From Leptodontidium sp. MPI-SDFR-AT-0119 (Eukaryota > Ascomycota > Leotiomycetes > Helotiales > Leptodontidiaceae), in the NCBI GenBank assembly GCA_020726505.1, contig JAHLEZ010000002.1, positions 3,224,001 to 3,288,000 of the forward strand: a stretch of 64,000 bases of DNA, written 5' to 3'. The position numbers and the translations under genes are program-made. How positions within the stretch are numbered: position 1 is the stretch's first letter; every line of letters starts with the position of its first letter. The notes beneath the pieces were generated by a model, which did not search any database, was not told the origin of the DNA, and saw only the letters and a list, made by a program, of their open reading frames with translations. Positions 61,900 to 64,000 of the stretch are shown piece by piece.

Positions 61900-62739
61900 T
61901 TAATCCCAGAAGTCCTTCCCGCCATACTTGTTCCCAATCAGAGCCTTTCCACCCCCCTCCACCTCGATACCATCATACTTGTGAGACCCCCCAATCGCAC
62001 CCCCAGTCCAGTCACTACTATATGCATCCCCCGTATAGGCCTGTCCTTTAATCCCAATATTCGAGTACTAATGCCCTCCGATGACTTCCTTAACCGTCCT
62101 TTAGAGCAGGGTATCGATACCTGTGGCTACATCCTTGATCAATTCAAGGGACTACTTGTCGCCAATCTCTGCTGCTTCTTCCTAGACAAGCTTTATTTAG
62201 GCCTGAGGTGCCGGGAATATCTTTTCGATTTCGTCGAGGAGTGAGAGGATCTATTCGAGAAGGTCTTTCAGAGTAGACCTATAGTAGAGAGCCCAGCTAG
62301 TCAGCTTCAAGAATCGACCCTTCTTCTGACGCTATATAGCGAAGCCTCTCATCTTGTTGTCCAGTACGAGCATCTTCAGATCCATATCGCCTGTCGAATA
62401 CGCTGAGAGATCCTCACTAGTCGTCGCAGTCAATTTATACTTCGTCGAGATGCTCTCAGTGTCTGCGAAGAGCACAAGAATTTAGAGCAACGCATCCTTT
62501 GCAAGTTAAATCTCGGCCGCAGTAGCATCCTGCCTGCCTAGTTTAAGATCGTCGTAGATGTTGACAGACTCGCCCCATCGTGTTAGACGGAGTCTGGCGC
62601 AGTCGAGAGCAAGCTTGCTGGTCTAGAAATCGCGACCGAAGTGGCGGCCAAATTAGACGTACTCAAAGCAGTCGACACATGCAGTAAATGCAGATGCAAT
62701 ACCAATGGCACCAGAGACAATCCCGAACAGCTCCGCCAT
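61900..62739 (-). pseudogene. HET-s/HET-S-like protein: HeLo domain and prion-forming region
   Basis: One frame of 280 codons from ATG at 62,739 to TAA at 61,900, no frameshift, interrupted by 11 TAA/TAG codons at positions where Gln or Trp is expected. The N-terminus (MAELFGIVSGAIGIASAFTA, then CVDCFEYV) and LRLTRWGESVNIYDDLKLG, later LTSWALYYRSTLKDLLE and LLDEIEKIFPAP, match the HeLo domain. The C-terminal 60 residues hold two amyloid repeats: YSNIGIKGQAYTGDAY (R1) and VEGGGKALIGNKYGGKDFWD (R2), the latter closely like the end of Podospora HET-s. Length is 279 residues against 289 in HET-s. In HET-S, amyloid templating of the C-terminus unfolds HeLo, which then disrupts membranes. A NACHT gene with a matching motif faces it 308 bp away. 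RIP stops make this copy non-coding unless bypassed. Confidence 0.92.
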
Positions 62740-63047
62740 TGTTCAGAGAGATGATAATAAAGAGAGACAAACTGGGGGTCGATGGAAGTTAGAGGTGTGA
62801 TAGATGTTGGTAGAGAGTGTGGGTGTGAAGTCCTTATCTGGAACTCAGCCGCAGCCTCACCACAGTAGGTAAGAACAGCCCCCTGCGGCTACAAATCGAA
62901 TCGAATGAGGACTACCCCTCACCTGCAACGACAACATCGTGCCATCACCGACTTACAAGGAGAAGTAGAGGCTTTGCACTTCACATGTACTGCTCACGCC
63001 AGCAGCTTCTCCACTTTTGCGGCAGCTAGCTCGCACGGCCGGTCGCA
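62740..63047. promoter_or_regulatory. Shared divergent intergenic region of the HeLo and NACHT genes
   Basis: 308 bp between the two divergent start codons; it should hold both promoters. No TATA box or operator could be defined. An open plus-strand frame from 62,905 overlaps it, in a frame different from the NACHT protein, and I treat it as fortuitous. Confidence 0.5.
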
Positions 63048-64000
63048 ATGTGGGTTCCCGAGCAGCCAGGTGGGCGACTGTCCACTCCCGGAAATCAATA
63101 TCAACACATTCAAGTCGCTGAAGGCGCCACAGCACAGCTTGGGAACACATATCATATCAGTTAGTCCTTGTAGATATAAAAGGAGACTTCTGTTATATAC
63201 TAACGCGCAACAGGCCGAGAAGACCCACTCAGCCTCCTCCCCTTTGCAACCAATGCACCTTTTAACTCCTACGACCGCCGGCACGAACCTGCCTGCCTCG
63301 ACAACACCCGCGTCGACCTTCTACAAGACATATATAACTGGGCTGACAGAGAAGATAAACAAGATGTGCGGTGCATCTTCTAGCTGAACGGCCTAGCTGG
63401 GACGGGAAAGTCGACGATCACTCGCACTGTGGCTCGGAGATTCTTTAAACAAAAGCGTCTTGGGGCTAGCTTCTTGTTTTCGAAGGGTGGTGGAGATATA
63501 AGCAATGCCCGCAAGTTTTTTACAAGTCTTGCCGTGTAACTCACTTTCAATGTGCCATCTCTTCGATCATCTATCCGTGAGGTCGTTACAAAGCGGGCTG
63601 ATATTGCGAGCCTATCACTCTCGGAGCAATAGCGTCAGCTTGTTTTTGGTCCACTATCGAATCTACAGAGTAAATCATGTCAATCTTATATTCTTGTTGT
63701 CGATGCACTTAATGAATGTGAGGATAACAAAGATATCCGGACTATTCTACTACTTCTAGCTGAAATCCGATCATTAACGACGCTACGATTTCGAGTCTTT
63801 TTGACGAGCAGACCTGACGTTCCAATCCGACACGGAATATGCGCTATTCCACAAGCCGAACACCAAGACTTCGTACTCCAGAGCATACAGCCAACGATTG
63901 TCAACTATGACATCTCTCTATTTCTTGAACACAATCTAGGTAGACTTAGGCAGGAATAGACTCTTAGAGCTGGCTGGCCAGGCGAACAGGTTCTCCAACA
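63048..64000 (+). pseudogene. NLR 3: amyloid motif and NACHT domain (NWD2-like), cut by window end
   Basis: Proposed start ATG at 63,048 (MWVPEQPGG), then an amyloid motif NQYQHIQVAEGATAQLGNTY (63,093 on), then a 54-bp intron (63,160-63,213; GTTAGT, TACTAAC branch site, CAACAG) that keeps the frame. After it come LLPFATNAPFNSYDRRHEPA and LLQDIYNWADREDKQDVRC, the P-loop LNGLAGTGKSTITRTVARRF near 63,390, FSKGGGDISNARKFF, Walker B ILVVDALNECED (one Asp to Asn) near 63,690, and FRVFLTSRPDVPIRHG. Four in-frame TAG/TAA codons are visible, all RIP type. The repeat domain lies beyond the window. By analogy with Podospora NWD2, the N-terminal motif seeds amyloid folding of the adjacent HET-s-like protein upon activation. 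Confidence 0.9.
63160..63213 (+). other. Predicted intron of NLR 3
   Basis: 54 bp with GTTAGT donor, a perfect TACTAAC branch site and CAACAG acceptor. It contains four stops in the NACHT frame and its removal joins the amyloid motif to the NACHT domain in frame. Confidence 0.85.

What the first reader, a model, noticed from the sequence alone, without database searches (positions are those of the whole stretch)
61900..64000. A HET-s/NWD2-type amyloid signalling pair in divergent arrangement
Seen: a HeLo-domain gene with two C-terminal amyloid repeats faces, across 308 bp, a NACHT gene whose N-terminus carries a 20-residue motif of the same pattern (Y..I.V..G.A...GN.Y). Known: in Podospora anserina HET-S and NWD2 are adjacent and the N-terminal NWD2 motif templates HET-S amyloid folding to trigger cell death. 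Inferred: this locus is an orthologous or convergent pair. Its presence next to two further NLR relics suggests a cell-death gene cluster.
Basis: partly seen in the sequence, partly recalled or inferred. Interest (0 to 1): 0.92.

Follow-up and report, generated by a model that had tools for sequence, protein, structure and literature searches.

The report
Broken cell-death gene pair on transposon
In a fungal genome, a sensor gene and a neighbouring, predicted pore-forming death gene that share a motif of the HET-s amyloid type are both broken by stop codons and lie between inverted repeats of a repeat family that likely carries such immune-receptor genes around the genome.

Summary
Window 62739-61900 (minus) reads as a 279-codon HeLo protein with two C-terminal HET-s-type repeats. 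Across exactly 308 bp, a divergent gene starts at 63048 with one such repeat (R0); a 54-nt intron joins it in frame to NACHT, with WD40 repeats beyond the window. Orthologous pairs occur in other Leotiomycetes. So this is a HET-S/NWD2-type pair, but a dead one: 35 in-frame stops in aligned codons (11 HeLo, 24 NLR), all TAG/TAA, 31 at Gln/Trp positions, with strand-biased C>T at CpA (RIP-like). The genome, likely Leptodontidium sp. MPI-SDFR-AT-0119, holds five copies of the pair; no HeLo copy found is intact, one sensor (contig C14) is.

Three further units with such ends show only a HET-NACHT-WD40 NLR among their longest ORFs; a fourth element also has a DDE_1 transposase and splits a paralogous HeLo gene. 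Likely reading: TIR transposons carry fungal NLR genes, this pair included, and RIP kills copies.

The parts
60753..60982 (+). left terminal inverted repeat of the unit, starting TAACG (partner: window-coordinate 68279-68032, outside the window, C12:3292279-3292032)
   Evidence: outer 73 bp 88% complementary, 228 bp 70%; genome-wide family
61900..62739 (-). HeLo-HRAM (HET-S-type) pseudogene, 279 codons plus TAA, 11 premature TAA/TAG
61924..61977 (-). second HET-s-type repeat R2
62020..62067 (-). first HET-s-type repeat R1 (two residues shorter; TAG just upstream at a Gln position)
62137..62724 (-). HeLo domain (PF14479)
62740..63047 (.). 308-bp divergent intergenic region
63048..63159 (+). NLR exon 1, carrying R0
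63099..63152 (+). single N-terminal HET-s-type motif R0
63160..63213 (+). 54-nt intron that joins R0 to NACHT in frame (predicted)
   Evidence: the same model in C14b agrees with P0121
63214..64000 (+). NLR exon 2, start (NACHT); continues to about window-coordinate 66522 with WD40 repeats; pseudogene, 24 in-frame stops in aligned codons
63330..63812 (+). NPHP3_N match (NLR nucleotide-binding domain)
   Evidence: C12:3287330-3287812

Best explanation
This is a HET-S/NWD2-type pair, a HeLo gene with two HET-s-like repeats facing a NACHT-WD40 receptor gene with one, both broken by stop codons that repeat-induced point mutation (RIP) likely made, lying between inverted repeats of an element family that likely carried the pair as cargo. 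Shown by calls: architecture, motif pattern, orthologous pairs elsewhere, stop codons and their CpA and strand bias, outward-facing TAACG-ended inverted repeats, NLR units with the same kind of ends, a DDE_1 transposase in one such element. Predicted: the intron. Inferred from the P. anserina system: in the intact ancestor the WD40 part would sense a ligand, NACHT would oligomerise, R0 would fold as a beta-solenoid amyloid and template R1-R2, and the HeLo domain would then attack the membrane and kill the cell. Inferred: transposition of TIR units multiplied NLR genes and this pair; duplication exposed the copies to RIP, which killed the window copy.
For: Family: the closest ortholog's HeLo hits HET-S/HET-s solved structures at E 1.3e-51, and its AlphaFold model hits only 2wvo, 2wvn and 2wvq at E<=0.001; the profile of the repeats finds HET-s(218-289), 2kj3, at E 2.5e-4 as best PDB hit. 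HRAM rules: of 120 listed HeLo homologs my anchor, which itself requires G19, found R2 in 111; of these 108 have H3, 108 K15, and 93 have all five core positions hydrophobic, against 169 of 21,534 windows inside the HeLo domain. R1-R2 loop 11 residues (allowed 6-18); R1 K11 faces R2 E11. Adjacent locus tags: V502_01091/01092, VE00_07428/07427, O988_01801/01802, B7494_g7219/g7218. RIP: against C14a, C>T at CpA on the minus strand of HeLo 15 of 45, on the plus strand 1 of 43; at CpT on the minus strand 1 of 46. 35 stops in aligned codons, none TGA, 31 at Gln or Trp, 4 at Leu of the reference. Cargo: paired ends 60753/68279; units C34:368267-373525, C18:749845-755227 and C2:1633153-1638918 with HET, NACHT and WD40 and no other gene seen among the longest ORFs printed; C14:151815-170154 has a 622-aa DDE_1 ORF and two HET-NACHT NLRs, one with stops. 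An NLR lies within 5 kb on the inner side of 18 and on the outer side of 6 of 91 ends, sign p 0.011. C14b's NLR 3' end faces a TIR-A end at C14:171110, as in the window.
Against: The usual RIP indices at 61-64 kb are outside the RIP range, so RIP rests on direction, CpA and strand bias. The window's arms are only 65% identical over 447 aligned bases and 70% over 228; only the outer 73 bp reach 88%, so two neighbouring elements could imitate one unit (the C2 unit, too, has only 78 bp at 91%). No transposase was seen in the window's unit. No end was found on the 10 kb fetched around the C18 and C68 pairs, nor on C14a's NLR side. NLRs are also above uniform expectation outside the ends (6 against 0.9 within 5 kb). 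Only 5 of 14 facing pairs of ends contain a listed NACHT match. R0 has N3, R1 and R2 have H3, so the motifs straddle the HRAM1 and HRAM3 labels, and window R0 has T15 instead of K/R15. The repeat part of the structure model has low confidence.
Confidence: 0.72

Rival explanations
1. A RIP-inactivated HET-S/NWD2-type pair that was duplicated by ordinary segmental duplication; the inverted repeats are separate insertions of elements that accumulate around NLR clusters.
For: Arms only 65% identical overall; NLRs enriched on the outer sides of ends too; three of five pair copies (C14a on its NLR side, C18, C68) show no end on the sequence fetched.
Against: The ends face outward on both sides with only the pair recognised between them; the outer 73 bp pair nearly as well as in the C2 unit; three NLR units have the same design.
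Confidence: 0.25
2. A working HET-S/NWD2 pair whose stop codons are sequencing or assembly errors, or are read through.
For: The HeLo frame is otherwise 81% identical to orthologs over all 279 codons.
Against: 35 stops, all TAG/TAA, with strand-biased CpA changes; 22 of 35 HeLo matches in this genome have no stop inside under the standard code.
Confidence: 0.02
3. Convergent pair: an unrelated HeLo protein and NLR that acquired similar short motifs.
For: Motifs are short; single-motif HMM scores are weak for several R0s.
Against: HeLo homology to HET-S over 219 residues, NACHT-WD40 homology, adjacency in other genera, profile match of R2 to R0.
Confidence: 0.02

Closest known systems
HET-S/NWD2 of Podospora anserina (PMC3321046 passages; PMC4344463 listing only)
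   Same: HeLo protein with two repeats, adjacent divergent NACHT-WD gene with one N-terminal repeat
   Different: here both genes are pseudogenes, the pair is multi-copy and sits between transposon-like ends; R1 and R2 carry H3 instead of N3
HRAM3 subfamily of HET-s-related motifs (PMC4518210)
   Same: H at position 3, K15, G19, hydrophobic 5/8/10/16/18 in R2
   Different: R0 has N3; R1 is two residues short in most of the family
RIP-killed NWDp1/NWDp2 of P. anserina (PMC1805685, passages)
   Same: NACHT-WD40 genes inactivated by RIP
   Different: here the effector gene beside the receptor is broken too, and the WD40 part carries 18 stops, whereas the P. anserina pseudogenes' WD repeats were spared (none and one stop)
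Starship cargo NLR (one sesA-NACHT-WD NLR in Gaeumannomyces, PMC12134995, passages)
   Same: a fungal NLR inside a mobile element
   Different: Starships are giant tyrosine-recombinase elements; these units are 5-18 kb with TAACG-ended inverted repeats, one with a DDE_1 transposase, and NLRs are their main recognised content

Membership tests
HET-S/NWD2-type amyloid signalling pair | HeLo domain homologous to HET-S | tested here: met
   PF14479 E 7.6e-39 with X at stops; PDB 2wvo E 1.3e-51 for the ortholog P0001; fold search
HET-S/NWD2-type amyloid signalling pair | two C-terminal repeats with G19 and hydrophobic 5, 8, 10, 16, 18; loop of 6-18 residues; aromatic/diglycine tail | tested here: met
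   rules; counts (R1 needs a two-residue gap); loop 11; tail GGKDFWD; profile hits 2kj3
HET-S/NWD2-type amyloid signalling pair | match to Pfam PF11558 | tested here: inconclusive
   no match at E<=10 and no control rang; no match in the protein scans; the paper reports 38 of 155
HET-S/NWD2-type amyloid signalling pair | adjacent NLR with NACHT-WD and a single matching N-terminal motif in the same frame | tested here: met
   splicing predicted, not shown by transcripts
HET-S/NWD2-type amyloid signalling pair | both genes open and able to act | tested here: not met
   35 in-frame stops: a pseudogene pair of the family, not a working one
HET-S/NWD2-type amyloid signalling pair | amyloid templating and cell death | not testable with these tools
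   needs bench work on an intact ortholog
RIP-mutated sequence | C:G to T:A changes concentrated at CpA | tested here: met
   HeLo minus strand 15 of 45 v plus strand 1 of 43; in the NLR part the CpA excess is weaker: plus 7 of 42, minus 10 of 37, against CpG 7 of 34 and 7 of 36
RIP-mutated sequence | TpA/ApT and (CpA+TpG)/(ApC+GpT) in RIP range | tested here: not met
   61-64 kb: 0.90-0.92 and 1.09-1.14
TIR DNA transposon unit | terminal inverted repeats with defined ends | tested here: met
   weaker than in C34/C18 (82% over 459-471 bp)
TIR DNA transposon unit | target-site duplication | tested here: inconclusive
   TA at both ends, which may belong to the TIR; at the C14a HeLo insertion TA is at both junctions, but 45 bp of other sequence precede the right one
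TIR DNA transposon unit | transposase in the family | tested here: met
   DDE_1 E 4.9e-31 in C14:151815-170154, related end set B; none seen in the window's unit
Podospora HNWD (het-D/E) NLRs | N-terminal HET domain | tested here: not met
   the window NLR has R0 instead; the units C34, C18, C2 do have HET

The most novel reading that the evidence does not exclude
A family of small TIR DNA transposons (DDE_1 type) carries whole fungal NLR genes, HET-NACHT-WD40 receptors and a complete HET-S/NWD2 sensor-killer pair, as its cargo: the immune-receptor repertoire of this fungus spreads by transposition, new copies land in old ones (one split a HeLo killer gene), and RIP culls them, leaving an intact sensor without any intact killer partner.
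Probability: 0.55. Interest if true: 0.8.

Novelty: new variant of a known kind. Interest (0 to 1): 0.6.

Why it matters
[quoted passage not shown] A transposon that carries NLR genes would give a direct, testable route for their spread and for the shuffling of sensor-killer pairs, and would set it against RIP, which punishes such duplicates. The orphan sensor on C14 raises a second testable question: what an amyloid-type NLR does once every cognate HeLo killer found in its genome is broken.

Tried and rejected
Stop-codon reassignment (TAA/TAG = Gln) was considered because all 11 HeLo stops fall at Gln of P0001; rejected, since NLR stops also fall at Trp and Leu and 22 of 35 HeLo matches are free of stops under the standard code. 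The first motif regex had the wrong spacing and found nothing; corrected. The Pfam scan of L009:5001-6500 was in the wrong frame and found no WD40; WD40 rests. A PNP_UDP domain in the TIR locus L047 was my impression from the letters; Pfam found none, so it is not claimed, and the notebook entry, which counts it and says 9 of 16 inner sides, is superseded: 7 of 16 by tblastn, plus TPR repeats in L055, which are not NLR-specific. An earlier, smaller version of the end-to-NLR test (82 ends; 162 NLR positions, 150, others and one) gave the same direction: families A+B 10 v 2 at 3 kb, 21 v 9 at 6 kb, 28 v 15 at 10 kb. For one search I merged two overlapping rows (C14:169936 and 170124), added 10 new rows and left out three of its rows that repeat listed ends (two on C47, one on C2). 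AlphaFold of the repeats gave low confidence and is not used for the solenoid claim. Whether other fungi have such units could not be tested here. Print: NLR cargo of TIR elements was looked for (listings only); I saw nothing of the kind listed, and the only mobile-element NLR I read of is the Starship one. That is no proof of absence in print.

Papers: PMC4518210 parts 1-2 of 5 and passages; PMC3321046, PMC9815663, PMC12258605, PMC12134995, PMC1805685 passages; PMC4986451 searched for four terms, none present; PMC4344463 and PMC3531502 listing only. Recalled, not from a call: that TA duplication with DDE_1 points to the pogo/Fot1 branch of Tc1/mariner; that Pseudogymnoascus, Chlorociboria, Hyaloscypha and Leptodontidium are Leotiomycetes.

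Full report
Observation. The HeLo frame runs from ATG 62739 to TAA 61902-61900 on the minus strand, 279 codons, the length of 14 of the 20 best database homologs. The facing gene starts at 63048, exactly 308 bp away. R0 at 63099-63152, R1 at 62067-62020 and R2 at 61977-61924 fit the HRAM numbering read in PMC4518210: Y5, I8, V10, A16, I18, G19 in R2 and Y5, I8, V10, A16, L18, G19 in R0; R1 has the same order with two residues missing. R1 and R2 have H3, the HRAM3 sign; R0 has N3, the HRAM1 sign, and T15 instead of the usual K/R15. A predicted 54-nt intron (63160-63213) joins R0 to NACHT in frame and is present at the same place in C14a, C14b and C18. WD40 repeats follow outside the window, 10.5 units of 126 bp.

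Controls on the motifs. R0 (17 sequences) against R2 and R1 in fixed register scores 1.53 and 1.65 per column, with 0 of 2000 column permutations reaching the observed score in either test. hhalign of the R1-R2-tail profile with the NLR N-terminus profile aligns R2 to R0, Prob 82.8, E 9.3e-6. The single-motif HMM is weaker: window R0 at 7.0 bits beats all 4800 shuffles, but of the 16 R0s tested several, including C14a, P0129, P0131, P0132 and P0140, do not stand out from their own shuffles. The profile of the repeats finds HET-s(218-289) as the best PDB entry (E 2.5e-4; an unrelated chain follows at 1.4e-3). Of 111 R2s found by an anchor that itself requires G19, 93 also have all five core positions hydrophobic, against 169 of 21,534 windows of the HeLo domains; of the 9 proteins without an anchored R2 some are truncated and at least P0013 has no G at 19.

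Family. Of 294 proteins found with the window HeLo (120 listed) the best are 81-82% identical over the full length; names include 'small s protein' from Rhexocercosporidium, Bisporella and Hyaloscypha. Of 43 NLR relatives, four that carry R0 have locus tags next to a HeLo hit: V502_01091/01092, VE00_07428/07427, O988_01801/01802, B7494_g7219/g7218; in the VE00 pair the HeLo protein is short (236 aa) and in the O988 pair the NLR is partial. Hyaloscypha sp. PMI_1271 has both on one contig (P0022, P0122). One NLR, P0121 from Leptodontidium sp. MPI-SDFR-AT-0119, has the length of the C14b model (1064 aa), is 100% identical over the searched region and lies on a contig of 1,163,561 bp, the length of contig C14, so the genome is very likely that strain.

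Copies. DNA search with 61880-64000 gives 30 matches. Five places hold parts of both genes: the window, C14a (150126-151816, HeLo C-terminus at 170200-170576), C14b (176665-178150), C18:140395 and C68:320134; three more hold HeLo parts only (C69:1344020, C28:103764, C69:1523666). The repeat region is found five times and R0 four times plus C14a by motif. No HeLo copy found is whole: the window has 11 stops, C14a is split, C14b and C18 have no match to the repeats, C68 and C28 have stops, and neither C69 piece has a HeLo-profile match. The C14b NLR is open.

How the window copy died. Against ortholog P0001 all 11 HeLo stops are at Gln (10 Gln, 1 Glu against P0006); of 6 stops in the NLR N-terminus and NACHT 5 are at Trp and 1 at Gln; of 18 in the WD part 11 are at Gln, 3 at Trp, 4 at Leu (aligned codons only). 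C>T at CpA on the minus strand of HeLo is 15 of 45 against 1 of 43 on the plus strand; in the NLR part CpA (7 of 42 and 10 of 37) exceeds CpT (4 of 49 and 6 of 40) but hardly CpG (7 of 34 and 7 of 36). This is a RIP-like pattern with one strand hit harder, though the composite RIP indices here are out of range, unlike 51 of the 60 1-kb bins of window 1-60 kb. RIP-killed NWD genes are known in P. anserina.

The inverted repeats. 60753 and 68279 are mirror-image ends beginning TAACG; the outer 73 bp are 88% complementary, 228 bp 70%, the wider arms 65% over 447 aligned bases. The left arm has 40 listed matches in the genome and the right arm 43; a related set, found with the element in C14a, has 42; each count includes the query itself and is a lower bound. 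I read three complete units: C34:368267-373525 and C18:749845-755227 with arms of 459-471 bp at 82%, and C2:1633153-1638918 with 78 bp at 91%. Each holds HET, NACHT and WD40 coding stretches, in two or more ORFs, and no other gene among the 6-7 longest ORFs printed. C14:151815-170154 has a 622-aa DDE_1 ORF next to its left end and two HET-NACHT NLRs, one with stops, and it interrupts the C14a HeLo gene at a TA; 45 bp of extra sequence lie between its right end and the rest of HeLo.

Is the NLR link more than chance? Of 91 ends, 18 have a listed NLR within 5 kb inside and 6 outside (uniform expectation 0.9 per side; sign p 0.011); within 3 kb 9 v 2 (p 0.033), within 8 kb 25 v 13 (p 0.037) (150 listed NLR positions). 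In the 16 fetched end loci (the best 10 of 40 and best 6 of 42) NLR or HeLo sequence is found by tblastn on the inner 1.5 kb of 7 and on the outer 1.5 kb of 2; Pfam counts on the ORFs are thinner (inner: HET in 3 of 53 ORFs; outer: NPHP3_N in 3 of 45 and HeLo in 1). So the link looks real, but NLRs are also dense outside the ends, and cargo is likely rather than proven for the window unit.

Function. Inferred from P. anserina (PMC4518210 text; PMC4344463 and PMC3531502 listings only): intact relatives would signal by amyloid templating from R0 to R1-R2 and HeLo membrane attack. The window copy very likely cannot, as both frames are broken.

Verdict. The pair is a member of a known kind, dead in this copy. 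What is new is its setting: transposon-like ends around a sensor-killer pair and around other NLR genes.

Noticed in passing
G000 C14:177614-174420 (L026): Intact R0-NACHT-WD40 receptor (1064 aa) in a genome where no intact HeLo-HRAM partner was found: an orphan sensor.
   Followed up: partly
C34:12103-12684 and C44:199584-200165 (L001, L002): Two HeLo loci with the same 276-aa open frame, near contig ends, with a different C-terminal part and no HET-s-type repeat found by regex: apparently a recent duplication without RIP-type stops in the HeLo part.
   Followed up: no
window 60004-60753 and L009:8388-9918: A roughly 98-bp minisatellite lies on both sides of the unit.
   Followed up: no
window 1-60000: Mostly AT-rich with RIP-type dinucleotide indices (51 of 60 1-kb bins); ORF 28255-28680 (minus) looks like part of a retroelement integrase (impression from the letters).
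   Followed up: no
C14:163784-164272 (L025:1784-2272): DDE_3 transposase fragment (E 1e-24), a second transposase type beside the short facing pair of ends C14:161401-163771.
   Followed up: no
window-coordinate 66360-68032 (L009:6360-8032): About 1.7 kb between the WD40 array and the right inverted repeat in which I recognised no gene (no profile search made there).
   Followed up: no
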